Below, in pieces: positions 156-14,559 of a stretch of 24,953 nt of DNA. Origin of the DNA: a virus; IMG/VR virus record IMGVR_UViG_3300035698_008452, positions 1 through 24,953 of that record; one strand, given 5' to 3'. The translations under genes were made by a program, and so were the position numbers. The notes beneath the pieces were generated by a model. It searched no databases. It saw only the letters and a list, made by a program, of their open reading frames with translations, and was not told the DNA's origin. Each line of letters opens with the position of its first letter. The stretch's first letter is position 1.

Positions 156-461
156 ATGAAATATAAACCAACTTCCAACTATTTATTAATTAAGCCAACT
201 AAAGTAAAAGATGCTACTAAAAGTGGCATTATTATCCCACATGAGGACAAGCAGATGCCTCAAAAAGGGATTATTATCGCTATAGGTGACAATATATCGG
301 AAGAAGGAAACACCCTGCCTATTCCTTATAAAATAGGGGATACTGTTCTTTTTAAAAAATGGGTAGCTGTTGAATATCAAATTGATCCTACTGATTTAAA
401 GAGTAATAAATATTTATTTTTAAAACATAATGAAATATTATCAATCGTAGAGGAAGATTAA
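156..461 (+). CDS. groES: GroES-like co-chaperonin (Cpn10)
   Basis: The 101-residue protein matches the usual Cpn10 length of about 95-100. In order it has an N-terminal strand (NYLLIKP, 8-14), a mobile-loop-like segment ending SGIIIPHED (23-31), a QKGIIIAIGD strand (36-45), a KIGDTVLFKKW core (59-69) and a C-terminal LFLKHNEILSIVEE (87-100). These are the conserved blocks of GroES. In the cell it would cap GroEL; no GroEL is in the window, so it presumably works with the host chaperonin on phage proteins, as T4 gp31 does. The start has no Shine-Dalgarno sequence but follows a promoter-like TATAAT. Its last base overlaps the next gene (TAATG). Confidence 0.87.
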   Translation: MKYKPTSNYLLIKPTKVKDATKSGIIIPHEDKQMPQKGIIIAIGDNISEEGNTLPIPYKIGDTVLFKKWVAVEYQIDPTDLKSNKYLFLKHNEILSIVEED

Positions 462-1330
462 TGAAAAAAATTAGTACTATTGGCGTTGTAGGTAGTAGAG
501 GAATGGTTGGTAGCAATACTTATCGTTGGTTTAAAAAACAAGGTTATAAAGTTTTTGGCTATAGTAATACTAAACGAGAAGAAGAAACTTTAGTAAATTC
601 TTCTGATTTAATATTTATTTGTGTTCCTACTCCTTATCGTTGGAATGGTAAGGGTTTTGATGCTTCTATTATTGATGGAGCATTGAAATCTATAAAAGAT
701 GGAGCAATGGTAATTATTAAATCTACAATTATTATTGGTACTACAAATAAATTTCAAAAGAAATATCCTCATTTAAAATTAATGTTTAATCCTGAATTTT
801 TATCAGAAGATACTTGTTGGACTGATTTTATCAATCCAGATAGACAATTTTTAGGTTATACCAAAGAGAGTTATAGTGTGGCTACCCAAGTTTTGCATAC
901 TCTCCCTCAAAGTCCTTATGATATTATCCTTCCTGTAAAAGAAGCAGAGTTATTAAAATATATAAATAACTTACATGGTGTTTTAGAGGTAATGGAAAGT
1001 AATCACTATTATGATGTTTGCCAAAAAGAAGGCTTAGATTATAAACGAATTGTAAAAGCTATGGTTTCTTCTAAATGGGTAGGTTGCCCTATGAGTAGAC
1101 ATTACAGAACAATTTTTCATAAAGGTAAAAGAGGGGTTGGGGGTAAATGTTTCCCTAAAGATTTAAACGCTTGGTTAGACTACTGTAAAGCTCTTGGAGT
1201 TAATACTAAATTATTTCAAGCCGCTAGGGATTATAATTTTGATTTATTGAAAGATCAAGGTTTAGATGAAGAAATGGCTGAACAAATTAGTAGTAAAGAA
1301 GACTTTGAAAAAATGAAGGAAAAAGTATAA
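461..1330 (+). CDS. UDP-glucose/GDP-mannose dehydrogenase family protein, short form
   Basis: The family oxidises C6 of a nucleotide sugar with NAD, giving for example UDP-glucuronate. The 289-residue product has a Rossmann loop near 8-17 (GVVGSRGMVG), VPTP (55-58), STIIIGTT (88-95), NPEFLSED (110-117), PDR (126-128), EAELLKYINN (161-170, with the conserved Lys and Asn) and GVGGKCFPKD (225-234), which supplies the catalytic Cys230. Family members are usually about 390-450 residues. This one stops about 60 residues after the cysteine and so lacks the C-terminal UDP-binding domain. The chain ends in a charged helix-like tail with no downstream in-frame remnant. GAGGAAG is a good ribosome site before the start. 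The substrate sugar cannot be told from sequence. A nucleotide-sugar epimerase follows one base later. Confidence 0.85.
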   Translation: MKKISTIGVVGSRGMVGSNTYRWFKKQGYKVFGYSNTKREEETLVNSSDLIFICVPTPYRWNGKGFDASIIDGALKSIKDGAMVIIKSTIIIGTTNKFQKKYPHLKLMFNPEFLSEDTCWTDFINPDRQFLGYTKESYSVATQVLHTLPQSPYDIILPVKEAELLKYINNLHGVLEVMESNHYYDVCQKEGLDYKRIVKAMVSSKWVGCPMSRHYRTIFHKGKRGVGGKCFPKDLNAWLDYCKALGVNTKLFQAARDYNFDLLKDQGLDEEMAEQISSKEDFEKMKEKV

Positions 1331-1331
1331 A

Positions 1332-2249
1332 ATGTCTAAATTTTTATGTACAGGTGGAGCAGGATTTATAGGAAGTAATTTTGTAGATTTTCTTATTGAT
1401 AAAGGGCATCAAGTTACTATTATTGATGATTTAAGTACAGGTAAAATAGAAAATATTAATCCAAAAGCTCGTTTTGTAAATAAAGATATTAGTGCTAATT
1501 TAGCTACATTTCTTTCAATATTTGCTAAAATTGATTGCGTTTTTCATTTTGCGGCATTAGCAAGAGTACCTAGATCAGTAAAAGACCCATTGGGGACTAA
1601 TAGAGTCAATGTAACAGGTAGTTTAAATATTTTGCAAGCGTGTAGACAATTAAGGATAAAATTAGTAATTTCTTCTTCTTCTTTAGTTTATGGTAATCAA
1701 ATTTCTCCTATTATGAAGGAAACTATGATTAAAAAGCCTTTATCTCCTTATGGATTACAAAAATCTATTGTAGAAGATTATGCTGATATGTTTTCTAAAT
1801 TATATGATATGAATATTATTTCACTTAGATATTTTAATGTTTATGGAAAAAGGCAGGTAAAGAAAGGAGCTTACTCTCTTGTAATTGGTAAGTTTTTAGA
1901 TCAGAAATCAATGGGGCAGAGAATGACTATATATGGTGATGGTAAACAAACTAGAGCTTATACTCATGTTTCTGATGTTGTTAGGGCTAACTGGTTATCT
2001 GCTAATTTGCCTATGAATACAAATGGTTCTCATCTTATTTTTAACATAGGAACTGGTGAAGAAACTAGTGTTAATCAAATTGCTGAAATGCTTGGGGGAA
2101 AAAGTAGACATATTATTCCTAATCCAAGAGGCGAGTTTGAAGAAAATAGAAAATGTGCTAATTTTAATAAAGCTAAAAAGATTTTAAAATGGCAACCTAA
2201 AATATTTATTAAAGAAGGTATAAAGAAAGTTTTAGAAGATGAAAATTAG
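1332..2249 (+). CDS. NAD-dependent nucleotide-sugar epimerase/dehydratase (extended SDR)
   Basis: The 305-residue protein is a typical extended short-chain dehydrogenase/reductase. It shows the nucleotide loop TGGAGFIGS (7-15), an acidic strand end IIDDLS (30-35), FHFAALA (71-77), the catalytic serines in SSSSLVYG (114-121), and the pair Y140xxxK144 (SPYGLQK), followed later by LRYFNVYG. These features fit UDP-glucose, UDP-glucuronate or UDP-GlcNAc 4-epimerases. It begins one base after the dehydrogenase stop, with AAGGA upstream. The gene pair suggests oxidation to a uronic acid followed by C4 epimerisation, for example UDP-GlcA to UDP-GalA. That pathway is inference; the fold and catalytic residues are clear. 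Confidence 0.9.
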   Translation: MSKFLCTGGAGFIGSNFVDFLIDKGHQVTIIDDLSTGKIENINPKARFVNKDISANLATFLSIFAKIDCVFHFAALARVPRSVKDPLGTNRVNVTGSLNILQACRQLRIKLVISSSSLVYGNQISPIMKETMIKKPLSPYGLQKSIVEDYADMFSKLYDMNIISLRYFNVYGKRQVKKGAYSLVIGKFLDQKSMGQRMTIYGDGKQTRAYTHVSDVVRANWLSANLPMNTNGSHLIFNIGTGEETSVNQIAEMLGGKSRHIIPNPRGEFEENRKCANFNKAKKILKWQPKIFIKEGIKKVLEDEN

Positions 2250-2287: not shown

Positions 2288-3127
2288 ATGCGTATTTCAA
2301 TATTAACAACTCTAACAGACCCAGTTAGGCGTCAAGATAAATGGCGTGAAGTTATTAATTCTTACTGTGCTTTTGCCGACCAAGTTGTTGTAGTAAATGG
2401 TACTACTAAACATGATGAAGTATTTTTCTATTTAGCTAAACAACCTAAAATAGTACAAGTATTTTCAACTTGGCCTTTTGAATGGAATTGGGTACAACTT
2501 CCTGAACAATTAAATAAAGGTAGAAAGTTTTGTACTGGCGATTGGATAATAAAATTAGATATAGATCAACTTATTCATGAAAAAGATTACAAAAAAGTCT
2601 ATAGGGCTTTGGCAGAGTGTCCAGATTACTGCCAAGTTGCCACCTTTCAAAAAATGTCCTATGTATCAAACAAAAAATACTACCAAAAAGGGGCACAACC
2701 TATTGCTTTTAAGAATAGTAAGAATATTGTTATAGGTAAAAACATAGAAAAGAGAACTGATTTGTGTTTTGCGGTTAAACGGACTGGACAAATTTATGAA
2801 GCAGGCTTTGAAATTCCTACTGGTACAGATTTAAACGAATATAAAACAGGAATTAAGTATTGGAATTATGATTATTTCTTTAAAACAAAAGAATTTACTA
2901 GAAAAGAATTTTGGAGATTCAGTAGAGCATATAATAGACATTTTAAAAGTTGGACTTTTGGTGATTCAGAACAACACTCTTTTGAAAAATTTATAAGTAT
3001 GCAAAAAGCTCGTTATAATAGAGCACCTTATACTTATAAATTAGAAGATCATTCTAAATTTATTAGAAAATCTGTAGAAGAATTAACCCCTGAACAATTT
3101 GGTTGGAATGGGTGGGGACTTTTATGA
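2288..3127 (+). CDS. GT-A-type glycosyltransferase-like protein
   Basis: The 279-residue protein begins with an MRISILTTLTDP strand, then a second strand QVVVVNGTT (32-40). The segment GDWIIKLDIDQLI (84-96) follows, with a D91-I-D93 motif at the end of a hydrophobic strand. This matches the DxD metal/nucleotide-sugar site of family 2 glycosyltransferases. It likely transfers a sugar from an activated donor; donor and acceptor are not predictable. A 38-base gap precedes it, with only weak ribosome-site similarity. Its stop overlaps the next start as ATGA, so the two are translationally coupled. Confidence 0.65.
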   Translation: MRISILTTLTDPVRRQDKWREVINSYCAFADQVVVVNGTTKHDEVFFYLAKQPKIVQVFSTWPFEWNWVQLPEQLNKGRKFCTGDWIIKLDIDQLIHEKDYKKVYRALAECPDYCQVATFQKMSYVSNKKYYQKGAQPIAFKNSKNIVIGKNIEKRTDLCFAVKRTGQIYEAGFEIPTGTDLNEYKTGIKYWNYDYFFKTKEFTRKEFWRFSRAYNRHFKSWTFGDSEQHSFEKFISMQKARYNRAPYTYKLEDHSKFIRKSVEELTPEQFGWNGWGLL

Positions 3128-4176
3128 AAATAAAAAATTTTTTAGATATTGATTGGGGTAAGTCTAGGCAAACTTATAATCTGGGTGGTAAACATTCTAT
3201 AATTATTGATGATCCCGCTAATATAAAAGAATGGCTTAACTTAGATATACCTAGAGGATATTGTTTAAAAGTTTTTAAATCTCCTGAATATTGGCAATCT
3301 ACTTTTATTTTAGAAGCAACACTTATTCAAAATATATTTTGGATTAATGGTTTAGCTCCTAGAGTTATTCATTGTGAGAAGGTTACAGATGATACTAAAG
3401 AGTTTTGGATTCAAATAGTTGAATATGTACAAGGACAATCTATTTTATCTAAAGAAGAAAGAAAACAAAAATTAGAAAAAGTAGCTAATGACAATTTTAT
3501 TAGCGTCTATAATGGTGAACACGATGAGATATTAACTAATGATAATAATTGGCGAGGGGATAAATACATCGATTTTGGTGGGTTTAAACTAGACGAGGCT
3601 AAATATAAAGAGAAGTTAATAGCTGAAATTAATGATGTTACTCATTTTGGAAAAGCTTATAAAGGCAAGAGAGCTAGTTATCAAAGTATTCCTGATTGGG
3701 ATGTGGATGGTAAAAGAAAGACTGATTACAGAATTAAGACCACAGGGTTAGACCAAATTGACTTCAAAGATAAATCTGTTTTAGATATTGGTTGTAATTT
3801 AGGAGCAATGCTTCACTATGCTCATAGTAAAGGAGCAACAACCTTAACCGGCTATGATAAACCTGTTCTTATTAAAGTAGCTAAAGAATATGCTAATTTA
3901 AGAGGACTACATGAATTAAATTTATATGCTCAAGATTTAACTAAGATAGTTCCTAGTCAACCTGCGGATATTGTTTTCTTTCTAGCTATGAGTAAATATT
4001 TAGGTTTTCCTCAATGGCTAGCTGATATGACTAAAGAGATTTGCTTTTATGAAGGACACGCTAATGATGACGTAAATTATACTGAAAAAGAACTTAATAA
4101 ATTATTTAGTAAGGTAGTTAGTAAGGGAATTTCAAACGATAGAAGTGAGCGTTGCTTGTATGTTTGCTATAAATAA
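3124..4176 (+). CDS. Kinase-like domain fused to SAM-dependent methyltransferase
   Basis: I chose the ATG at 3124 (350 residues) because it forms an ATGA junction with the previous gene and lies just after GGGGA; an in-frame ATG at 3103 would add seven residues. The front half carries the spaced signature of a protein/aminoglycoside kinase core: K49 in LKVF, E64 in a following helix, a hinge-like IVEYVQG (98-104), H133-D134-x4-N139 resembling the catalytic loop, and IDFGG with D150-F-G152. The back half is a class I methyltransferase: KSVLDIGCNLGAM (217-229), an acidic end of strand 2 (GYDKP, 243-247), and the later strand ADIVFFLAMSKY. The gene at 4686-5774 is a paralog. The methyltransferase call is firm. 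The kinase reading rests on residue spacing alone. Confidence 0.72.
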   Translation: MKIKNFLDIDWGKSRQTYNLGGKHSIIIDDPANIKEWLNLDIPRGYCLKVFKSPEYWQSTFILEATLIQNIFWINGLAPRVIHCEKVTDDTKEFWIQIVEYVQGQSILSKEERKQKLEKVANDNFISVYNGEHDEILTNDNNWRGDKYIDFGGFKLDEAKYKEKLIAEINDVTHFGKAYKGKRASYQSIPDWDVDGKRKTDYRIKTTGLDQIDFKDKSVLDIGCNLGAMLHYAHSKGATTLTGYDKPVLIKVAKEYANLRGLHELNLYAQDLTKIVPSQPADIVFFLAMSKYLGFPQWLADMTKEICFYEGHANDDVNYTEKELNKLFSKVVSKGISNDRSERCLYVCYK

Positions 4177-4177
4177 T

Positions 4178-4693
4178 ATGTTGACAGATCCTACCGGCTT
4201 TCCAATGATGAGTACAGAAGAAGTTACTATTATTAATGACCTCATTAGAAAAGAAAAACCAGAAAATTGTCTTGAATGGGGTAGTGGTAATTCAACTTTA
4301 TATTTTCCTAAGTTACATACTTGTATTAAACATTGGCTATCTATAGAACATTTAGGTAAATATATTAAACATCTCACACCAGACATAGACAAAAAAGTTT
4401 CCTTAATGTGGATTCCTGAAAATGAATGGTATGTTGATTGTGTAAAACATCAAGGTAAAAAATATGATTTTATTTTAATTGATGGTTATGACCAACAAAG
4501 AGAGAAGTGTTTAGAAGTTGCTATGCAAATAGCCAAAGAGGGAGCAATAGTTCTGTTACACGATTCAGGTCGAGAGAGTTATCGAAAATTTCTTGAAAAT
4601 TATGGATCGAAAGTAGAGATATTATCTGAGGGTGAAAAAGAAGTCAGAAATGGTTTTTTTGCTCATAGAGGATTAGCAAGGATTTATGTATAA
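4178..4693 (+). CDS. Small class I SAM-dependent methyltransferase
   Basis: Starting at the ATG at 4178, one base after the preceding stop, gives 171 residues; an in-frame GTG at 4145 and an ATG at 4160 lie inside the previous gene. Motif I is CLEWGSGNST (31-40), followed by SIEH (56-59), the strand-4 region KYDFILIDGYD (95-105) and AIVLLHDSGR (123-132). This pattern (E-x-G-x-G, then IDG, then HD) is that of the Methyltransf_24-like family found in surface-sugar clusters. It likely methylates a sugar or related small acceptor. No Shine-Dalgarno sequence precedes 4178, so translation is probably coupled to the upstream gene. It overlaps the next gene by eight bases. Confidence 0.75.
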   Translation: MLTDPTGFPMMSTEEVTIINDLIRKEKPENCLEWGSGNSTLYFPKLHTCIKHWLSIEHLGKYIKHLTPDIDKKVSLMWIPENEWYVDCVKHQGKKYDFILIDGYDQQREKCLEVAMQIAKEGAIVLLHDSGRESYRKFLENYGSKVEILSEGEKEVRNGFFAHRGLARIYV

Positions 4694-5774
4694 AATAAAA
4701 AATATAACTGGATTAAAGGTAGGTAAACAAGCTAAAATTAGTAGAGAGCAACCTTTACTAACTGAAATTTGTAAGAAGTATGGTCGTGACCCCAGTAAGT
4801 GTTGTTTGAAAGTCTTTTATGGCAATCCTTTAGAAGAAGGTCAAACTTTAAATGAAGCATTGTGGGGAGATAATCCACTTTCACCTCCTAGAAATACTAG
4901 AAAAAATACTACTGTTTTTGCTGGTAGCCAAGTACAAAACATTCTTTGGAAACATAGAATAAGCCCAAGGGTATTTGCTATGTTTGAAGCAATTTACAAT
5001 GGGGATAGAGTGGCTTGTCAATTAACTGAATTTTTAGAAAATCCAACTGCTACCCATATTGACCAAGTTTATGAAGTTTGGCATAAAACAGAAGCCTGTG
5101 GTAAGGACTATGGTTTTACAGCACAAAGTAGAAAGATGAGTCCGAATGATGTAATGGGTGGACAGAATGTTGACCCTCAACTATGGGCATTTGATAATAA
5201 GCCTTATTTAGAAACAGTTAAGAAAATTTATATAGAGAGAGGAAGATACGGAAAAGTCTATTATCAAGATGAACCTGAGATAGGACTTACGGGTAGTCCA
5301 AGAAAGAGTGCAGATAGAATTAAATATATGCAGTTAGATAAGATAGACTTCAAAGATAAGGTTGTTTGGGATATTGGTTGTGCTGGTGGTTTCTTTTGTA
5401 GATATGCTTATAAGAGAGGGGCAAAAAGAGTAATTGGTTTTGATATGAAAGATCCAATTATTGCTTCTTTTCATGTAGCTAATTATCTAGGTATGTTTAA
5501 TATTGATTTTATAGAAGCTGATTTACTTAAAGACTTACCTTTAGAAGGTGTTCCTAAAGCAGATATAGCCTTCTTTTTATCAATGGCTTATCATGTGCCT
5601 ATTCCTCAACAAATGTTGAAAATGGTTGATACAGTTATTTTTGAAGATAATGGTAAGACTAGTAGAGAAAAAGATAAGCCTGAATCAATTTGGAAAGAAT
5701 ATTATTCTAAGATAGCGTTAGTAGGGCATGCTTTAGATCATGGGGCAAAACCTGTGTATCATTGTACAAGATAG
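4686..5774 (+). CDS. Methyltransferase with kinase-like N-terminal region (paralog of 3124-4176)
   Basis: The 362-residue protein aligns by eye over its length with the gene at 3124. Shared elements are LKVF (41-44), the VQNILW...ISPRVF block (83-97), a hinge-like QLTEFLE (112-118), and KIDFKDK followed by VVWDIGCAGGFF (226-237), which is motif I of a class I methyltransferase. GFDMKD follows as the acidic strand-2 end, then ADIAFFLSMAYH. The methyltransferase half looks functional. The kinase-like half is less complete: no clear DFG is seen (the nearest candidate is AFDN at 168-171), and the glutamate of the N lobe is not obvious. An AAGGA lies just before the start, and the gene begins inside the preceding one. 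The function of the front half is uncertain. Confidence 0.7.
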   Translation: MYKIKNITGLKVGKQAKISREQPLLTEICKKYGRDPSKCCLKVFYGNPLEEGQTLNEALWGDNPLSPPRNTRKNTTVFAGSQVQNILWKHRISPRVFAMFEAIYNGDRVACQLTEFLENPTATHIDQVYEVWHKTEACGKDYGFTAQSRKMSPNDVMGGQNVDPQLWAFDNKPYLETVKKIYIERGRYGKVYYQDEPEIGLTGSPRKSADRIKYMQLDKIDFKDKVVWDIGCAGGFFCRYAYKRGAKRVIGFDMKDPIIASFHVANYLGMFNIDFIEADLLKDLPLEGVPKADIAFFLSMAYHVPIPQQMLKMVDTVIFEDNGKTSREKDKPESIWKEYYSKIALVGHALDHGAKPVYHCTR

Positions 5775-5820: not shown

Positions 5821-7386
5821 ATGCGAATACTTATAATCATCGACAAGGGCGGAACAGCAATAGACCGATTAGCACAATCGGTAGCTAAGTATTTACCTCA
5901 ACATGAGATTAAAGTTTTTCCAGTACATCCTAAACGTAACGATATAGAAACAATGATTGAAGTTCAGAAGTTAATGACTTGGTGCGATGTACTTGATATT
6001 CATTATTGGAAATCAGGCAAAATTCTTAGAACTTCTTTTCCAAATGAGTTTGATAGTAAGCCTAAAGTTTTATTTCATTTTAATCCTTATGATGCTGAGA
6101 GTGAAGAAAATAAAAAATATGACAAAGTAGTTGTAGGTAATAAAGAAATTCATAGTAGAGTTCCTTCCGCTTATTATATTCCTTATGGTGTAGATCTTAG
6201 TTACTTTAAATTTAAGCCAGAATATACTGATGAAAAAGTAGTCAATATGTCTGTGGCTAGAATTGAAGGTAAAAAAGGTATTTTGCCAGTAGCTAAAGCT
6301 TGTAAAGAATTAGGTTATAAATTTAGATTAGTTGGTCGGGTAAGTAAACCTAACTATATGCGTGAGATTATGGAAGCAGGAGAGGGTGTAATTGAGTTCT
6401 GGGAAAATGCAACTGATGACAAATTAAGAGAAGTTTACTATAGTTCTGCAATTCATGTATGTAATTCAGTAGATGGTTTTGAGAGTGGAACATTACCTGT
6501 TTTAGAAGCTATGGCTTGTGGATTACCTGTATTGGCTAGAAATATTGGTCATGTACCTGATTTATATAATGGTTCCAATTTAGTATTAAGAGACAATGCT
6601 GTTGATCACGAAAGTCTAAAAAATCTTTTGAAAGATATGATGGAGAATAGAGAGTGGCGTTTGAAGCTAAGACAAAAAGCTTGGGAAACTGTTAAGACTA
6701 GAGATGTAAGAAAAATGGTACAAGAGATTAATAAACTTTATAATAGCTTATATTTAAGTCATCTTCCTTTAGTAAGTATTATTTTACCTACCAAGAATAA
6801 TCCAGAATGTTTTGTAAAATCTTTATATGGTGCTTTAAAACAAGATTATCCTAAATTAGAGATATTAGTGTCTGATAGTAGCACTACTCCTATTAAATTA
6901 ATTATAGATGAGGCTCAAAAGAGAACATCAATACCAATAAGATATTTATACTTTCCTCATAAAAATAATTATACTTTAGCCGAGGCTAGAAATAGAGCAG
7001 TTGTTGAAGCTGATGGAGAATATTTAGTATTCTGTGACAATAGAATTAAAATGAATACTGATGCTGTATCTCATTTTGTAAATTATAGAAAAGCTAAATG
7101 TTGGTTATGGGGAATGAAAGATAATGCTATTAAAAGTTTTGTTGAAAACTTTAGTTTTATTAGTAGACGTGAGTTTATTGATAAAGGCATGTTCTGTGAA
7201 CGTATGCAGTGGTATGGAGGAATGACCCAAGAAGTAAGAGAAAGATTTGAAAAGCAAAATGGTTTTAATTTTATTTTTATAGATGAAGCAAAGGCAGAAG
7301 GTATAAAGAGATCTAAATCAAAGACATCACGAATGGAAGCTATAGTTGAAGCTAAGTATCTACTTTATAAAATGTATTACAAATAA
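5821..7386 (+). CDS. Two-domain glycosyltransferase: GT4 (GT-B) fused to GT2 (GT-A)
   Basis: The 521-residue protein joins two transferase folds. Residues 1-310 look like GT4: the N-terminal MRILIIIDKGG, IPYGVDLSYF (120-129), VARIEGKKG (145-153), FRLVGRV (168-174), and the nucleotide-sugar E-x7-E motif with E221 and E229 in the block ending LEAMACGLPVLA (228-239). Residues 316-490 look like family 2: LVSIILPTKNNP (317-328), EILVSDSS (347-354), EARNRAVVEADGEYLVFCDN (388-407) with D406 at the metal-site position. Such a protein could add two different sugars in succession. The start has a good AAGGA site. The next gene begins one base after its stop. The fold assignments are strong; donors and acceptors are unknown. 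Confidence 0.85.
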   Translation: MRILIIIDKGGTAIDRLAQSVAKYLPQHEIKVFPVHPKRNDIETMIEVQKLMTWCDVLDIHYWKSGKILRTSFPNEFDSKPKVLFHFNPYDAESEENKKYDKVVVGNKEIHSRVPSAYYIPYGVDLSYFKFKPEYTDEKVVNMSVARIEGKKGILPVAKACKELGYKFRLVGRVSKPNYMREIMEAGEGVIEFWENATDDKLREVYYSSAIHVCNSVDGFESGTLPVLEAMACGLPVLARNIGHVPDLYNGSNLVLRDNAVDHESLKNLLKDMMENREWRLKLRQKAWETVKTRDVRKMVQEINKLYNSLYLSHLPLVSIILPTKNNPECFVKSLYGALKQDYPKLEILVSDSSTTPIKLIIDEAQKRTSIPIRYLYFPHKNNYTLAEARNRAVVEADGEYLVFCDNRIKMNTDAVSHFVNYRKAKCWLWGMKDNAIKSFVENFSFISRREFIDKGMFCERMQWYGGMTQEVRERFEKQNGFNFIFIDEAKAEGIKRSKSKTSRMEAIVEAKYLLYKMYYK

Positions 7387-7885: not shown

Positions 7886-7972
7886 ATGAAAAATAATAAA
7901 AATAGCAAAGAAAGGAGCAAGAGCCACGGCTACACCAAGAAGTTTAAAATCTTTGGTGTTCCGTGGCACTAG
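7886..7972 (+). pseudogene. Displaced N-terminal segment of the following glycosyltransferase (ends in TAG)
   Basis: An ATG at 7886 opens a 28-codon frame that ends KKFKIFGVPWH (residues 18-28) and stops at TAG (7970-7972). KIFGVPWH is what I expect as the first strand of the glycosyltransferase encoded immediately downstream in another frame. In proteins of this type the block WHVAHQ is expected to continue directly, and VAHQHDL does follow, but eight bases later and out of frame. The front of the segment is Lys/Asn/Ser-rich and unlike the family. No Shine-Dalgarno sequence precedes the ATG, although an AGGAG lies inside the segment at 7913-7917. This may be a frameshift mutation, an assembly error or a recoding site. 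Confidence 0.5.
7923..7967 (+). repeat. Strong hairpin (quasi-palindrome) at the glycosyltransferase 5' end
   Basis: GCCACGG (7923-7929) is the exact reverse complement of CCGTGGC (7961-7967). Inside it, ACACCA (7932-7937) pairs with TGGTGT (7954-7959), and AGA (7938-7940) pairs with TCT (7950-7952), with small bulges and a nine-base loop. In all about 16 base pairs form, with a GC-rich outer stem that stands out in this AT-rich window. No run of T follows, so it is not a typical intrinsic terminator. The 3' arm ends two bases before the TAG that breaks the gene. Confidence 0.75.
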
Positions 7973-8943
7973 TTCCCGTTGCTCATCAACATGACCTAGC
8001 TAAAATGTCTTTTATTGATCAATACGATCTATTGATTAATCCATATAGAGGATGGGGAACAAGTCATAGACCTTTCCCAGAGAAATGTAATTGGGTTACT
8101 CATTATGAAAAAGGTAAGTATGACTTTGCTATTCTTCATGTAGACCAACAATCAATTTATAACCCAGAGCAGGGAGATAGAATTCATAAAGGTAGACTAT
8201 ATTTAGATATTAGAGAAGCTATCGGGGATGATATTCCTATCATAACTATTAATCACATGACCCCATTTCATGATAAGTATGAGAGTCCTTATGTTGTCGA
8301 TTTTATTAAGAAGATGACCAAGGGTACTACTATGGTTTGTAATTCTTTTACTGCTCAAAAACAATGGGGTTGGGGGCATGTTATTACACATGGAATGGAT
8401 AAAAATGATTGGCTTGATTTACCTAAAGAACCTAGATGTGTAACTGTTCTATCTCCTGCTGGTATGGAAAAAGCCTATCGAAGAATATTTTTAACTACAG
8501 TTGCTCGATTATTAAAAGCTAAAGGTGTTCCTTTTACTTGGGTAGGAGTTGATAGAAAGTTTCAAAGTTTTGAAGAATATAAGAATTTTTTAGGTAGATC
8601 CCTAGTATTCTTTATGCCTACTTGGCAAAGTCCTAGACCAAGAGCAAGAACAGAAGCTATGTTAAGTGGATGTTGTATAGTTAGTACTCCTTATCAAGAT
8701 GCAGATATTTTTATTAAACATGGAGAAAATGGTTTTTTAACTAGTAAATCAGTAATATCTGATCCTAGGGTAATGGATAATCCAGAAGCTACTGCTAATT
8801 TAATTAAAAGATTAGTTATTGATAAACCTGACTTGGCTCTAAAGATAGGGCAAAAAGGTAAGGCTACTGCTTATGAATTATTTAGTCCAGAGAAATTTGA
8901 AGCACAATGGGTAGAATTATTAAAAAGTATTAACATAATGTAA
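7963..8943 (+). CDS. Glycosyltransferase (GT4-like, GT-B fold), 5' end disrupted
   Basis: The longest open frame starts at a GTG (7963) buried in a hairpin stem; 326 residues follow. Recognisable parts are VAHQHDL (6-12), a HYEKGKYDFAILHVDQQ block (47-63), ITINHMTP, CNSFTAQKQWGWG, and a C-terminal donor-site region RARTEAMLSGCCIVSTPY with ENGFL after it, typical of family 4 enzymes. The usual first strand (KIFGVPWH) is present just upstream but in the frame ending at TAG 7970-7972. The GTG has no ribosome site and the open frame is closed by TAA at 7945, so this start is doubtful. The first internal ATG is at 8005. The body is well conserved, which argues that the gene is still in use or was broken very recently. 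Confidence 0.75.
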   Translation: MALVPVAHQHDLAKMSFIDQYDLLINPYRGWGTSHRPFPEKCNWVTHYEKGKYDFAILHVDQQSIYNPEQGDRIHKGRLYLDIREAIGDDIPIITINHMTPFHDKYESPYVVDFIKKMTKGTTMVCNSFTAQKQWGWGHVITHGMDKNDWLDLPKEPRCVTVLSPAGMEKAYRRIFLTTVARLLKAKGVPFTWVGVDRKFQSFEEYKNFLGRSLVFFMPTWQSPRPRARTEAMLSGCCIVSTPYQDADIFIKHGENGFLTSKSVISDPRVMDNPEATANLIKRLVIDKPDLALKIGQKGKATAYELFSPEKFEAQWVELLKSINIM

Positions 8944-9276: not shown

Positions 9277-9453
9277 ATGTCAAAAAAAACTGATCATAAA
9301 AGATTGTGGCGTAATGAAAAAATTAAGACTATAAGGCTTGGAGAACAATTAGCTACTGCTGAGAAAAGAATTAATACTTTAGTTACTATGTTAAAAGCAA
9401 TTAAAGATGGTCAAGTAGATGTAAAGGAACTAACTATAGATGAAAAAAAATAA
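9277..9453 (+). CDS. Very small ORF of unknown function (58 residues)
   Basis: The ATG at 9277 lies one base after the previous stop (TAATATG, a junction also seen at 4178 and 7388), and the frame closes with TAA at 9451-9453. It overlaps the next gene by 14 bases in a different frame. The product is basic and probably a single long helix: SKKTDHKRLWRNEKIKT, then GEQLATAEKRINTLVTMLKA with leucine/isoleucine spacing that could form a coiled coil. It fills what would otherwise be a 164-base gap in a region with almost no spacing, which supports it being real. No family is recognised, and there is no clear ribosome site. Confidence 0.5.
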   Translation: MSKKTDHKRLWRNEKIKTIRLGEQLATAEKRINTLVTMLKAIKDGQVDVKELTIDEKK

Positions 9454-10312
9454 GATTTGCGGAATTTTGACAATGGAGAAGATGGACAATAGATTGAAAA
9501 ATACTATAGGTTCTTCTCGTATTAGAGCTAGATGGTTACTTCCTTATTGGCCTGAAGCTGAGGAATATGTTATAGGTAGAAAATATGATGTAATGATTTT
9601 TCAAAAAGTTTACTGGGAATCATTTAAAAATAATGGCAATTATAAAGGGATTAAAATCTTAGATCTTTGTGACCCTGATTGGTTAGAAAATAAACCCGTT
9701 TTTGAGTATATAGATTGGGTAGACGCAGTAGTTACTTCTACTCAATCATTGGCTGACTATATTAAAAAATTAAGGCCTAATTGTTTAGTTAAATGTATCC
9801 CCGATAGAGTTTATATTCCAGAAGCTAAACCAATTAAAAAATTCCATGATGAAAGTTTAAGGAAATTAGTATGGTTTGGTTATAATCAAAATACCCATTA
9901 TCTAGTTAATACTTTTGATGAATTAATTACTAAAGGTATTGAATTAACTATTCTTTCTAATTCAGCTTATGATCCTCCATTAATCTATAGAGGCAAATTA
10001 AAGCTAAATAATATTCCTTATAATCAACAGACTTTAAATAAAGAATTAATTAAACATGATGCTGTTTTAATGCCTGATCCTCATGGTGATGAGAAAGGTA
10101 AATTTAAATCAAATAATAAAACTTTAATTGCTTGGTCGGTGGGAATGCCTATTATTAAAATACCCGAAGACTTAAAAAGATTATTACCTAAAAAAGAAAG
10201 GGTAAAAGAATCGGAAAAAAGATTGAAAGAGATTAAAGAAAAATGGACAACAGAAATATCTGTTCAGGAATATAAATCATTAATAAACACAATACTAGCG
10301 AAGAAATTCTAA
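9440..10312 (+). CDS. Glycosyltransferase-like protein (GT-B, family 1/4-like)
   Basis: The 290-residue protein has the outline of a GT-B enzyme. It contains SSRIRARWLLPYW (25-37), RKYDVMIFQK, GIKILDLCDPDW, a short strand DAVVTSTQSLADYI in the position where family 4 enzymes place their acceptor-side helix, then RKLVWFGYNQNTH and a donor-site-like KFKSNNKTLIAWSVGMPIIKIP. The last block resembles the S-N-N-R/K-T...G-x-P-V/I element of group 1 transferases. The length is short for GT4. It starts inside the preceding small ORF, with AAAGGA 12 bases upstream. The substrate is unknown. Confidence 0.65.
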   Translation: MKKNKICGILTMEKMDNRLKNTIGSSRIRARWLLPYWPEAEEYVIGRKYDVMIFQKVYWESFKNNGNYKGIKILDLCDPDWLENKPVFEYIDWVDAVVTSTQSLADYIKKLRPNCLVKCIPDRVYIPEAKPIKKFHDESLRKLVWFGYNQNTHYLVNTFDELITKGIELTILSNSAYDPPLIYRGKLKLNNIPYNQQTLNKELIKHDAVLMPDPHGDEKGKFKSNNKTLIAWSVGMPIIKIPEDLKRLLPKKERVKESEKRLKEIKEKWTTEISVQEYKSLINTILAKKF

Positions 10313-10335: not shown

Positions 10336-10788
10336 ATGACAGAAGAAGATAAAAACCCAGTTGGAAGACCACCAATTAGTAAAGAAGATAAAGAAGTAAT
10401 GCTATCAAAATTAGAACCATACTTAAAAAGTGGTCTAAGTATAAGAAAATCTCTACTAGAAGCTGGTGTTCCTAGTGCTACTTTTTATAGAGTTAAAGAT
10501 ACCGATGATGAATTTAGAGAGAAAATTGACCGATTTAGACAGTTTGTATCAGTATTATTAAATAATTCTATCGTTAGGGAAATACAAGCAGTTATTAAAA
10601 AACAAAATAATGATGAAAGATTAACTGGTGAAGAAGTTAGTTTACTTAAATGGTTTGCTACTAATAGCAATTTAACTAAGGGTGAATTTGGTGAGAGAAA
10701 GAATATTGGTTTATATGATCCTGAAGCTGAGATTAGTAGGCTTTCTAAATTAATGGATGACCCGAAAGACGCTGAGAAAAAAGAATAA
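10336..10788 (+). CDS. terS: Terminase small subunit (TerS)
   Basis: The 150-residue protein lies directly before the large terminase (TAATG junction), the usual place for TerS, which binds the phage DNA and directs packaging. The N terminus has VGRPPI (9-14), an AT-hook-like DNA contact common in such proteins. A helix-turn-helix follows: GLSIRKSLLEAGVPSATFYRVK (33-54). The middle is helical and could oligomerise. The C-terminal tail is acidic and lysine-rich (DPEAEISRLSKLMDDPKDAEKK), where TerS proteins usually contact TerL. AGGA is well placed before the ATG. Confidence 0.8.
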   Translation: MTEEDKNPVGRPPISKEDKEVMLSKLEPYLKSGLSIRKSLLEAGVPSATFYRVKDTDDEFREKIDRFRQFVSVLLNNSIVREIQAVIKKQNNDERLTGEEVSLLKWFATNSNLTKGEFGERKNIGLYDPEAEISRLSKLMDDPKDAEKKE

Positions 10789-12209
10789 TGGCCTTATCAA
10801 AATATGCAAAACGATGTAGATTATATTTCCGCAGTTTAGATGGGGAAAGATTTAAGTTAACTCCAGGACAAGAAGAAATTTTTAAAGCTGTATACGAGCC
10901 TAGTATTACTAGAGCTACTATAAAAGCTATTACTCAATATGGGAAAAGTGAAGTAGCTTCAATGGCTTTGATTACATGTGCGATTGAACGATTGGAAAAG
11001 ATTTTAATTGTTGCTCCATCAGCTAAACAAGCTGGAATCATTATGGGTAAGATTGTCGAACATTTATTCGACCATCCTTTACTTACAAGTATGATTGATT
11101 ACTCCGAAGGTACAGTTGAAAGACTAAGACAAGAAAGAAGTAAGAATAGAATTACTTTCAAAAATGGTAGTGAAATTAAAATGCTTACTGCTGAAACTAA
11201 ATTTACTACTAAAGAATCTAAGGGCTTAATGGGTTTTGGTGCTACTATTGTTTTGGTAGATGAATCCTCATTAATTCCTGATTCAATGTTTTCTAAGATT
11301 TTAAGAATGGTTGGTGGTGTTAAACATGGTAAGTTAATTCAATTAGGTAATCCATTTGAAAATAATCACTTTGGAAAAGCCTTTGATTCTAAGAGATATT
11401 TATCTATTAGCATTAATTGGCGACAAGCTTTAGCCGAAGGTCGTATTACCCAAGAGTTTCTAAATGAAGCTAGAGAAACAATGAGTGAAATGGACTGGAC
11501 TATATTTTATGAGTGTAAATTTCCTGCTGGTGGGGCTGAAGATGCTCTTATACCTAGGGTTTGGATTGAGAATGCTGTTAATCAAAAGAATTGTGGTGGT
11601 ACTCATAAACAAACAGGCTTAGATGTGGCTAGGTTTGGTAAAGACACTACAGTTTATTTATTTAGGCAAGGTGGGGAAGTAAAACGAATAGATGTTACTC
11701 AACAAATGGACACAATGGAAGTTACTGGTTGGACTACTGAAAAATTAGAGAAAGATAGCCCTGATGTCCATTGTACTGATAGTATTGGCGTTGGTGGTGG
11801 TGTCCATGACCGGTTATTAGAGCTTCAAGGCAGTGATAATAACGATCATTGGATAGACACCGAAATTACCCCTGTTAACGTGGGTGAATCGGCTAAAGGA
11901 TGGGAAGGTGATGTTGAGGCTAAAGATAGATTCTTTAATTTAAGAGCACAAGTACATTGGAATTTAAGAAAATTATTTAAACCTGATAAAAATGGGCAGA
12001 GTCAAATTTCTATTCCAGATGATGCTGGGTTGAAAAAAGAATTAGGTGAGATAAGATATAAGTATAGCTCTGAAAGAAAGATTAAAATTGAAGCTAAAGC
12101 TGATATGAAAAAGAGATTAGGCTTGTCTCCTGATAAAGCTGATGCTTTAGGATTAGCTTTTATGGACACACTAGAGAATCAACCTCAGATGGTTATTATG
12201 GATGTATAG
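10788..12209 (+). CDS. terL: Terminase large subunit (TerL), ATPase plus nuclease
   Basis: TerL translocates DNA into the procapsid and cuts it. The 473-residue protein shows both halves. In the ATPase these are a Walker A variant TQYGKSE (49-55), the adjacent strand ILIVAPSAKQA (72-82), Walker B IVLVDESS (154-161) and a coupling motif LGNP (186-189). In the RNase H-like nuclease these are GLDVARFGKD with D279, CTDSIGVGGG with D331, and ADALGLAFMD with D452. All three metal-binding acids appear present. The length is normal. It begins by overlapping the TerS stop and is followed by a 40-base gap to the portal gene. Confidence 0.93.
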   Translation: MALSKYAKRCRLYFRSLDGERFKLTPGQEEIFKAVYEPSITRATIKAITQYGKSEVASMALITCAIERLEKILIVAPSAKQAGIIMGKIVEHLFDHPLLTSMIDYSEGTVERLRQERSKNRITFKNGSEIKMLTAETKFTTKESKGLMGFGATIVLVDESSLIPDSMFSKILRMVGGVKHGKLIQLGNPFENNHFGKAFDSKRYLSISINWRQALAEGRITQEFLNEARETMSEMDWTIFYECKFPAGGAEDALIPRVWIENAVNQKNCGGTHKQTGLDVARFGKDTTVYLFRQGGEVKRIDVTQQMDTMEVTGWTTEKLEKDSPDVHCTDSIGVGGGVHDRLLELQGSDNNDHWIDTEITPVNVGESAKGWEGDVEAKDRFFNLRAQVHWNLRKLFKPDKNGQSQISIPDDAGLKKELGEIRYKYSSERKIKIEAKADMKKRLGLSPDKADALGLAFMDTLENQPQMVIMDV

Positions 12210-12249
12210 ATTTATTATTTAATAGAATAGTGGTAGACTTAAGATAGAT

Positions 12250-14559
12250 ATGGCAAAACAAAAATTAGATACCCCTCAAATATCATCTTCGGCAGTAATG
12301 TCGTTCCCTAAACCTCCTTTAAGAAATACTCAAGAATACTTAAAAGCTTATAGTGGTTATCCTTATACAGCTATTTCTGCTATTGCTCAAGAAGTAGCTT
12401 CAATAAATTTACACTTATTTAAGACTAAATTTAGTAAAAATAAAGGTAAACCTGAGAGTGAAGAAGTATATGAACATGAAATACTTAGCTTACTTAGATA
12501 TGTTAATCCTCTTACTACTTTTTATGATATTGTTGAAGCTACTCAAATTTACTTAGAATTAACTGGCGAAGCTTTTTGGATTGTATTAAAACAAGATAAG
12601 ACTCCTAAAGAGTTCTGGCTAGTTAGGCCTGATTGGGTGAAGATTGTTCCTAGCTCAACTGAGATTATTGATCATTACACATATCATCCAGGTGGAAGTC
12701 TCGAAAAGGTAGACATTCCTAAAGATAATATGATTCACTTCAAGAATTTTAATCCTTTAAATCCATATAGAGGTAAAGGTCCATTACAAAGTGCAGCACT
12801 ACCTGTGGATATTTTGAATTTTGCCCAAGAATATAATCGTAATTTCTTTTTTAATAGTGCAATACCTAGTATGGTATTCTCTACAGATAAGAATTTAAGT
12901 GCAGCTGTTATTAAAAGATTTATCAATCAATGGCAAGGTAGTTATGGTGGTAGAGGTAAATCTAATAAAGTTGCTTTCTTAGGTAATGGTTTAAAGTTAG
13001 ATACTATTAGTCAGGGTGCCAAAGAATTAGACTTTACTGAACAACAAAGATTAATGCGTGATGATATTCTCGCTGTCTTTAAAGTTCCTAAATCTATTCT
13101 AGGTTTAACTGAGGATGTTAATAGGGCTAACGCAGAAGCAACTAATAAAGCTTTTATGGACAGAACAATCAGTCCTAGAATGATAAAATTTGTCGGGACA
13201 TTAAATGAGTTTTTACTTCCTATGTATAACGATAAATCTTTATTCTTAGACTTTATTGACCCATCACCAGAAGATGCTGAGGCAAAGATAAAATATTATG
13301 AGAGTGGATTAAAATATAAATGGTTAACTCAAAATGAGGTTAGAGCCCTAGAGAATTTAGAGCCATTAGAGGGTGGAGATATATTGAATCCTGTAGAAGA
13401 AACTATAGATGAGGAAGAAGAAACAGAGAAGCCTGATACAGAGAAGCCAAAAGAGGAAGAAGAAGAAAAAGGATTATTGCATAAAGTATTTGGTAAAAAG
13501 AAAGTTAAGAAAGTGAAAGTTTCTTATACTAAAAAACTTAAACCAAAACCATTTAAACATATGATGCCTATTCCTGTTAAGGGCTTAGATGATCTTAAGC
13601 GAGAAAATTTAGAAAAGAAATTAACTAAAGAATTAGTTGGTTTTGTAGGTCAATTCTTAAAGAAAGAGAATATAGATAATCTAGGTATTAAACAACCAAC
13701 TAAGACAGAGGTTGTAAAAGAAAATACTCCTATATTTACTGAGGAAGCAAAAGATGCTTATTGGAAACAATTTATAACCTTTGTTTCAGATAAAGAACCT
13801 GAATTAAGAAATCAGACTGTAGATATATTTAAAGAACAAGAAGCTCAAGTAATGGATATCTTAGATAAAGATGTTAAATATTGGCGTAAAACAAATAGAG
13901 TCGGTAAGGCTGGCTCAAGTGTTCCCAGTTTAGTTGCAATGGAAATGTTATGGAAAGGTGCTTGGTTAACTATTTTAAGAGAAGTATATATTGAACAAGG
14001 TAATTATACTTTAAATTTCTTAGGCACAGGAGCTAATATTGATGTTACTACTGAAACTGCTTATCAATATTTACGAGTACATTCTTCTCAACTAATTACT
14101 GAAATAAATGAAACTACTAGAACTGCTTTAATGGAAACCTTGGCCGAAGGTTATAAAGAAGGTGAATCTATAAACGCATTAAAGAAGCGTGTAAATAAGG
14201 TCTTCAAGAAAGCTCAAGGTAGTAGAGCAGAGTTAATTGCTAGAACAGAAATTATCAGGGCTAGTAATGCCGCAGTTGTAGAAGCTTACCGACAAAGTGG
14301 TGTAGTCGAAGCTAAAGAATGGCTAACTGAGAGAGATGAGAGGGCTTGCCCTTATTGTTTATCTATGGATGGCAAGATTGTTGACTTAAATGTTGATTAC
14401 TTTAAGGTTGGTGATAAATTAACAGTAGATGGCCAAACATTAACAGTAGGTGGAGCTGACGTCGGTTCTCCTCCATTACATCCTAATTGTAGATGTACTA
14501 CCATTCCTGTATTGTTAGGAGAAAAAGCTCTTAAAGAAAAAGTTAATAATAAAAAGTAA
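12250..14559 (+). CDS. Portal protein fused to a MuF-type head morphogenesis domain
   Basis: At 769 residues this is far longer than a single portal (about 400-500). Residues about 20-380 match the HK97-type portal family: YPYTAISAIAQEVA near the start, an ALPVDILNFAQEYNRNFF helix, IPSMVFS, and FKVPKSILGL (about 277-286) followed by a long helix. An acidic Glu-rich linker (about 387-410) and a basic stretch follow. The C-terminal part (about 640-760) is MuF-like: RAELIARTEIIRASNAAVVE (658-677), a Cys pair ACPYC (698-702), then PPLHPNCRCTTIPV (about 741-754). The HPNCRC ending is the family hallmark. The fused MuF suggests that the minor head protein is anchored to the portal ring. The start has only a weak ribosome site. 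Confidence 0.9.
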   Translation: MAKQKLDTPQISSSAVMSFPKPPLRNTQEYLKAYSGYPYTAISAIAQEVASINLHLFKTKFSKNKGKPESEEVYEHEILSLLRYVNPLTTFYDIVEATQIYLELTGEAFWIVLKQDKTPKEFWLVRPDWVKIVPSSTEIIDHYTYHPGGSLEKVDIPKDNMIHFKNFNPLNPYRGKGPLQSAALPVDILNFAQEYNRNFFFNSAIPSMVFSTDKNLSAAVIKRFINQWQGSYGGRGKSNKVAFLGNGLKLDTISQGAKELDFTEQQRLMRDDILAVFKVPKSILGLTEDVNRANAEATNKAFMDRTISPRMIKFVGTLNEFLLPMYNDKSLFLDFIDPSPEDAEAKIKYYESGLKYKWLTQNEVRALENLEPLEGGDILNPVEETIDEEEETEKPDTEKPKEEEEEKGLLHKVFGKKKVKKVKVSYTKKLKPKPFKHMMPIPVKGLDDLKRENLEKKLTKELVGFVGQFLKKENIDNLGIKQPTKTEVVKENTPIFTEEAKDAYWKQFITFVSDKEPELRNQTVDIFKEQEAQVMDILDKDVKYWRKTNRVGKAGSSVPSLVAMEMLWKGAWLTILREVYIEQGNYTLNFLGTGANIDVTTETAYQYLRVHSSQLITEINETTRTALMETLAEGYKEGESINALKKRVNKVFKKAQGSRAELIARTEIIRASNAAVVEAYRQSGVVEAKEWLTERDERACPYCLSMDGKIVDLNVDYFKVGDKLTVDGQTLTVGGADVGSPPLHPNCRCTTIPVLLGEKALKEKVNNKK

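What the first reader, a model, noticed from the sequence alone, without database searches (positions are those of the whole stretch)
3124..4176. Phage-encoded kinase-methyltransferase fusion resembling a WbdD-type glycan cap enzyme with reversed domain order
The front half carries K49, E64, D134-x4-N139 and D150-F-G in the order and spacing of a kinase core, within only about 110 residues, followed by a clear class I methyltransferase. WbdD of E. coli O9a, which ends O-antigen chains by phosphorylation and methylation, has methyltransferase first and kinase second. A kinase-first version inside a phage glycan cluster would be a new architecture and would suggest capping of a phage-made glycan. 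The methyltransferase is seen directly; the kinase is inferred from spacing, and its C lobe seems very small.
Basis: partly seen in the sequence, partly recalled or inferred. Interest (0 to 1): 0.7.

Follow-up and report, generated by a model that had tools for sequence, protein, structure and literature searches.

The report
Phage mini-kinase fused to methyltransferase
A gene in an uncultivated phage's sugar-building cluster makes a protein whose front half folds like a stripped-down kinase and whose back half is a methyltransferase; it belongs to a previously unnamed phage family that probably decorates a phage-made sugar, but the kinase-first order is not new and this copy's kinase may be inactive.

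Summary
The ORF at 3124-4176 (350 aa) is real. Its C half is a class I methyltransferase. Its N half (1-178) is predicted with high confidence (pLDDT 88.5, pTM 0.85) to fold as a kinase N lobe plus a very short C lobe; all 50 listed PDB matches are protein kinases. It belongs to an unannotated family: 31 other uncultivated viral contigs carry the fusion, and P0001 has no match in 50,697 deposited phage records. K49 (31/33), D150 (33/33) and F151 (32/33) are conserved. Relatives sit in a syntenic cassette (GT2, fusion, GT4-GT2, GT4, GT-B-like, often terminase/portal) with no flippase or exporter seen. A sugar-modifying enzyme, perhaps adding methyl-phosphate, is the best reading; a WbdD-type chain terminator is not supported. 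Kinase-first kinase-methyltransferases are already known (NoeA/Lani_1194), so the architecture is not new. The family, its miniature kinase and its phage head-gene setting appear to be.

The parts
3124..4176 (+). P0001, kinase-like domain + class I methyltransferase fusion (350 aa)
   Evidence: ATGA overlap with upstream GT2 gene
3124..3657 (+). residues 1-178: miniature protein-kinase-like domain; K49 codon 3268-3270, E64 3313-3315, E132 3517-3519, D134 3523-3525, N142 3547-3549, D150 3571-3573
   Evidence: AF2 pLDDT 88.5, pTM 0.85; 50/50 listed PDB Foldseek hits are kinases, best E 6e-4
3748..4173 (+). residues 209-350: class I SAM-dependent methyltransferase (DIGC motif 221-224)
4686..5774 (+). 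P0002, second copy of the fusion from a different clade; kinase loop degenerate (K where D/E is expected, VDP for VDF)
   Evidence: 27% identity over 59-348
4145..4693 (+). Methyltransf_24-type methyltransferase between the two copies; same type is fused to the C end of relatives L044, L048, L050, L099
2288..3127 (+). GT2 glycosyltransferase, overlaps P0001 start; homologues in 11 of 29 loci
5821..7386 (+). GT4-GT2 two-domain glycosyltransferase; homologues in 16 of 29 loci
7963..8943 (+). GT4 glycosyltransferase; homologues in 14 of 29 loci
9440..10312 (+). unannotated GT-B-like protein, homologues in 14 of 29 loci; one relative matches Glyco_transf_4
461..2249 (+). UDP-glucose dehydrogenase-like gene and nucleotide-sugar epimerase
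10788..14559 (+). terminase large subunit and portal-MuF fusion, immediately downstream of the glycan cassette

Best explanation
P0001 is one member of a phage protein family in which a stripped-down protein-kinase-like domain is joined in front of a class I methyltransferase. Shown: the kinase-type fold (by prediction), the methyltransferase, the conserved ATP-site Lys and metal-site Asp in the family, and close linkage to glycosyltransferase genes. Inferred: in most family members the kinase half moves a phosphate from ATP to a hydroxyl of a sugar that the neighbouring glycosyltransferases have built or will build, and the methyltransferase half methylates the same sugar unit, on the phosphate (as in WbdD) or on a hydroxyl. 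With no export genes in sight and terminase and portal next door, the glycan is probably used inside the infected cell, most likely on virion proteins. In the window two unequal copies sit in one operon: P0001 with a rearranged catalytic loop and P0002 with a broken one, so here one or both kinase halves may only bind ATP or substrate and help the methyltransferase.
For: Fold: AF2 of residues 1-178 pLDDT 88.5, pTM 0.85; PDB Foldseek top 50 all protein kinases, probability up to 1.00; top viral matches also kinases. Conservation: K49 31/33, D150 33/33, F151 32/33, N142 column N/D 32/33, acid at the catalytic-Asp position (D or E) in most; L021 (FDGNIDNVVAGKWVDFQG), L054 (HSEDFYPSNMIGGKWVDFGN) and L049 (DAGMRNWRGDKFVDFSH) have textbook D-x4-N...DF. 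Context: of 127 immediate neighbours around relatives, 31 match GT2 and 22 GT4 profiles and about 18 methyltransferases, plus nucleotide-sugar enzymes; synteny GT2a - fusion - GT4GT2 (16/29) - GT4 (14/29) - GT-B-like (14/29) - portal (10/29). Independent parallel: L063 encodes GT4 - Pkinase (4e-9, HRDVSPEN) - methyltransferase in one chain. Precedent: WbdD and ORF6-O7 phosphorylate then methylate a glycan end (PMC3482155, PMC11231755).
Against: No sequence-level hit to any kinase family; kinase assignment rests on predicted fold (TM-score 0.3-0.5 because most of the C lobe is missing) and conserved residues. P0001's own catalytic acid is uncertain (E132 or D134), and WbdD D351E is dead in vitro (PMC3482155). 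P0002 and the kinase-MT-MT24 fusions have lost the loop but keep the domain, which shows that the domain can be kept without catalysis. No acceptor is identified; contigs are fragments, so export genes could lie outside.
Confidence: 0.55

Rival explanations
1. The N half is a pseudokinase: an inherited kinase fold that now only binds ATP, a nucleotide sugar or the acceptor, and positions substrate for the methyltransferase, which is the only enzyme activity (a sugar O-methyltransferase).
For: Catalytic acid lost in P0002, L014b, L035, L048, L050, L053 and in the kinase-MT-MT24 fusions L044, L048b, L050b, L099; C lobe too small to hold a normal substrate site.
Against: Most members keep D/E-x4-5-N/D plus K and D150 across deep divergence, which is hard to explain without catalysis in those members. 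It may well be right for P0002 and is a real possibility for P0001.
Confidence: 0.28
2. A WbdD-type chain terminator: phosphorylates and methylates the non-reducing end of a lipid-linked glycan to stop polymerisation and hand it to an ABC exporter.
For: Same two activities in one chain, inside a glycan cluster; methyltransferase profile matches that of WbdD.
Against: No coiled-coil ruler; no multi-pass membrane protein or transporter in the window, and only one gene with three or more hydrophobic segments among 261 neighbours of relatives; N half not related by profile; the His pair of the WbdD methyltransferase site (H132/H133) is not kept at what looks like the comparable motif, P0001 reading SKYLG (inference, alignment to WbdD not seen residue by residue).
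Confidence: 0.05
3. The enzyme acts on nucleic acid: a phage DNA hypermodification enzyme in which glycosyl, phospho and methyl groups are added to modified bases.
For: Phages do glycosylate DNA (e.g. PMC12838424); neighbours include several glycosyltransferases and methyltransferases.
Against: No modified-nucleotide synthesis genes seen in the window; GT types (GT2, GT4, UDP-sugar enzymes, DegT aminotransferase, GNAT) are those of complex glycan assembly.
Confidence: 0.07
4. Ordinary methyltransferase with an unrelated N-terminal domain; the kinase signature is coincidence.
For: No Pfam, NCBIfam or PDB sequence match for the N half.
Against: High-confidence model whose listed PDB matches are all kinases, with the conserved residues at the kinase positions.
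Confidence: 0.05

Closest known systems
NoeA / Lani_1194 kinase-methyltransferases (Sinorhizobium pSymA; PMC9758233)
   Same: Kinase domain first, class I methyltransferase second; small divergent kinase with atypical motifs; neighbourhoods that modify sugar-containing molecules
   Different: Kinase halves show no profile-profile relation (hhalign E 0.22, only 16 columns); NoeA kinase is longer and has R for K49; 476 aa; in bacteria, not seen in deposited phage records
WbdD of E. coli O9a (PMC3482155)
   Same: Kinase and methyltransferase in one chain, glycan cluster, methyltransferase profile match
   Different: Methyltransferase first; full-size eukaryotic-like kinase of about 250 residues with D351/N356/D369; C-terminal coiled coil; works with an ABC exporter
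ORF6-O7 of Klebsiella pneumoniae O7 (PMC11231755)
   Same: Unannotated kinase found only by fold, next to a methyltransferase, shown to make methyl-phosphate on a glycan
   Different: Methyltransferase first, AmiN-like kinase of 223 residues, CBM and coiled coil, GT2 modules in the same chain
Lcin_0519 family (PMC9758233)
   Same: Kinase-methyltransferase in polysaccharide clusters
   Different: Lacks helix alpha-C, often coiled coil and Wzt/Wzm neighbours; P0001 has a clear alpha-C helix (62-74)
L063 protein (IMG/VR 3300037193_001137)
   Same: Viral contig, kinase followed by methyltransferase in a glycosyltransferase protein
   Different: GT4 in front; kinase loop recognised by Pfam Pkinase (4e-9); no significant relation of the kinase halves by hhalign

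Membership tests
Protein-kinase-like fold superfamily | N lobe with beta3 Lys and alpha-C helix, followed by catalytic loop and DFG | tested here: met
   K49 31/33, D150 33/33
Protein-kinase-like fold superfamily | Catalytic Asp and Asn (HxD-x4-N) | tested here: inconclusive
   Met in most relatives as D/E-x4-5-N/D; in P0001 N142 is kept but the acid is displaced (E132 or D134); lost in P0002
Protein-kinase-like fold superfamily | Complete C lobe (helices F to I) | tested here: not met
   Only about 78 residues follow the N lobe before the methyltransferase linker; reduced C lobes occur in other kinase-fold families, so this does not exclude the superfamily
WbdD (methyltransferase-kinase chain terminator) | Domain order methyltransferase then kinase | tested here: not met
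   Kinase-like 1-178, methyltransferase 209-350
WbdD (methyltransferase-kinase chain terminator) | C-terminal coiled-coil ruler | tested here: not met
   Protein ends with the methyltransferase at residue 350
WbdD (methyltransferase-kinase chain terminator) | Homologous kinase domain | tested here: not met
   Profile of the N half finds no kinase chain in the PDB, WbdD included
WbdD (methyltransferase-kinase chain terminator) | Phosphorylates and methylates a glycan end | not testable with these tools
   Needs assay
NoeA / Lani_1194 family | Kinase first, methyltransferase second | tested here: met
NoeA / Lani_1194 family | Homologous kinase half | tested here: not met
   hhalign of A10 against four NoeA-type kinase halves: E 0.22, 16 columns, not in register
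Class I SAM-dependent methyltransferase | Rossmann fold with motif I and acidic end of beta2 | tested here: met
   VLDIGCNLG 219-227, D245; Foldseek and HMM matches

The most novel reading that the evidence does not exclude
A new family of working miniature kinases (about 178 residues, most of the C lobe missing) that sit in front of a methyltransferase and place a methylated phosphate on sugars of a glycan that phages build on their own virion proteins, with tandem active and inactive copies setting specificity.
Probability: 0.2. Interest if true: 0.75.

Novelty: new variant of a known kind. Interest (0 to 1): 0.48.

Why it matters
Some kinase-methyltransferase fusions (WbdD, ORF6-O7) are the enzymes that put methyl-phosphate on bacterial surface glycans. 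This one appears to be a separate family with its own very reduced kinase, found so far only in uncultivated viruses and genetically tied to a conserved glycan cassette that often lies next to the phage head genes. If the kinase works, it would be among the smallest kinase-fold enzymes known and would point to phosphate- or methyl-phosphate-bearing glycans made by phages. It also gives a mixed set of intact and broken kinase loops on the same fusion, useful for asking what the kinase half contributes.

Tried and rejected
Single-sequence scans of viral contigs with P0001 or P0002 found nothing; the pair alignment opened the family. The genome collection scan gave only an unrelated PrmA-like methyltransferase (read). 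Searches of deposited phages and plasmids with P0001 found nothing, and of phages with L021 and L054 only methyltransferase fragments or nothing. Full-length Foldseek was dominated by the methyltransferase, so the N half was modelled alone. hhalign of the N half against L063's kinase was not significant, though its 12 aligned columns put D134 on the HRD Asp and N142 on the Asn. Ser-rich tail-like proteins in the window looked like possible glycan acceptors, but in the parts of nine relatives' contigs that were read no such repeats occur (one protein just passes the Ser/Thr threshold, two others are antisense frames), so this was not used as family evidence. I could not obtain the residue-level WbdD alignment or model coordinates.

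Full report
The ORF and its setting. The window is an IMG/VR viral record of 24,953 bases, GC about 31%. The ORF 3124-4176 encodes 350 aa. Its ATG overlaps the stop of the upstream GT2 gene (ATGA) and its end overlaps the next gene, so it is embedded in an operon: GroES, UDP-glucose dehydrogenase-like, nucleotide-sugar epimerase, GT2, P0001, Methyltransf_24, P0002, GT4-GT2, methyltransferase, GT4, unknown 110 aa, GT-B-like 290 aa, small terminase-like, terminase large subunit, portal-MuF, GT2, DegT aminotransferase, GNAT and more.

P0002 (4686-5774) is 27% identical over residues 59-348, so the N half is shared and is a true domain, not a chance stretch.

A family. Aligning the two copies gave patterns that found relatives in viral contigs: 6 loci, then 18, then 61, of which the last set includes many methyltransferase-only matches. 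Thirty-one other contigs carry the N half plus methyltransferase (alignment A8). Deposited phage and plasmid records have no match to P0001. Pfam, PHROGs and NCBIfam name only the methyltransferase half.

Is the N half a kinase? AlphaFold2 gave pLDDT 88.7 and pTM 0.88 for the whole protein and 88.5 and 0.85 for residues 1-178 alone. Order of elements: strand 25-28, helix 31-38, strand 46-51 (K49), helix 62-74 (E64), strands 81-89 and 92-100, helix 110-123, strand 126-128, short helix 133-138, D150-F-G, helix 158-172. Foldseek against the PDB: the 50 listed hits are all protein kinases, best E 6.4e-4; against viral models most named hits are kinases. TM-scores are modest because most of the C lobe is missing. 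The family alignment, built without kinases, has K49 in 31/33, D150 in 33/33, F151 in 32/33 and P79 in 33/33. No sequence method reaches a known kinase.

The catalytic loop. In most relatives the pattern is [D/E]-x4-[N/D]-x7-D-F, for example FDGNIDNVVAGKWVDFQG in L021 and HSEDFYPSNMIGGKWVDFGN in L054. The N/D lies 8 residues before D150 in 32 of 33, so in P0001 it is N142, not N139. P0001 has extra loop residues (GEHDEILTNDNNWRGDKYIDFGG). Its nearest orthologue, L014:246-1232, reads GDHSETQSNEENWFDGKYVDFGG: D134 is Ser there and the shared acid is E132/D. In the tree P0001, L014b, L055 and L057 form one clade (SH-aLRT 97); P0002 lies in another clade of 15 (96) and has Lys where the acid should be. 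Scored as D, E or lost, the loop changes state at least 8 times on the tree. L044, L048b, L050b and L099 are kinase-like - methyltransferase - Methyltransf_24 fusions with a broken loop. So the family is kinase-derived and mostly kinase-competent by motif, but P0001 is doubtful and P0002 probably dead.

Context across relatives. Of 127 genes flanking the relatives, 31 match GT2, 22 GT4 and about 18 methyltransferase profiles, with UDP-glucose dehydrogenases, epimerases, PIG-L and deacetylases. tblastn of window genes against 29 loci shows synteny: GT2a in 11, GT4GT2 in 16, GT4 in 14, the GT-B-like gene in 14, portal in 10, large terminase in 3. Window genes include no multi-pass membrane protein by a simple hydropathy test, and one of 261 neighbour genes has three or more segments. 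This argues for a glycan used inside the cell, for instance on virion proteins, and against export of an O-antigen; the contigs are incomplete, so this is not proof.

Comparison with known systems. WbdD is methyltransferase-kinase-coiled coil, with D351, N356, D369 and E274 in the kinase; D351E or D351A abolishes activity (PMC3482155). ORF6-O7 is methyltransferase-kinase-CBM-coiled coil with proven methyl-phosphate transfer (PMC11231755). The Lani_1194 family, which includes NoeA, is described as a kinase-methyltransferase family with about two thousand homologues (PMC9758233). I read NoeA from pSymA (L092:4285-5712) and aligned three relatives: invariant R39, D129, N134, D146 precede the methyltransferase, so kinase-first is established. 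hhalign shows the methyltransferases related (E 4.5e-11) but not the kinase halves (E 0.22). L063, a viral contig, has GT4-kinase-methyltransferase in one chain.

Verdict. Observation partly confirmed; interpretation partly supported. Most likely P0001 is one of two unequal copies of a phage kinase-methyltransferase family that modifies sugars of a phage-made glycan. Shown: methyltransferase, kinase-type predicted fold, conserved ATP-site residues in the family, glycan-cassette linkage. Inferred: kinase activity, sugar substrate, methyl-phosphate product, virion target.

Noticed in passing
window 21266-22990 and 22963-24951: A LamG/DUF2341 protein and a following repeat protein (open at the window's end) both carry long Ser-rich runs (SPSLSPSISPSVSLSPS...). 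They look like mucin-type linkers and would be natural O-glycan acceptors. Such repeats were not found in the parts of nine relatives' contigs examined.
   Followed up: partly
L044:7878-9779, L048:3447-5228, L050:6215-8089, L099:2824-4533: Three-part fusions kinase-like - methyltransferase - Methyltransf_24 with a degenerate kinase loop; the third part is a separate gene beside P0001 in the window (4145-4693).
   Followed up: partly
L063:1417-3648: GT4 - protein kinase (HRDVSPENVL) - methyltransferase in one 744 aa chain on a viral contig; a different kinase with the same order.
   Followed up: partly
window 461-1330: UDP-glucose dehydrogenase-like gene of only 289 aa, matching the N-terminal domain profile from position 69 and lacking the C-terminal domain; may be truncated or a reduced enzyme.
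   Followed up: no
window 9440-10312: Unannotated GT-B-like family conserved in 14 of 29 relatives' loci (KSNNKTxTAWALGMPV motif).
   Followed up: partly
L058, L060, L062 (contigs of 298-548 kb): Stand-alone 205 aa methyltransferases of the same type in very large viral contigs, without the kinase-like half.
   Followed up: no
window 156-461: A phage GroES (co-chaperonin) gene lies just upstream of the glycan cassette.
   Followed up: no
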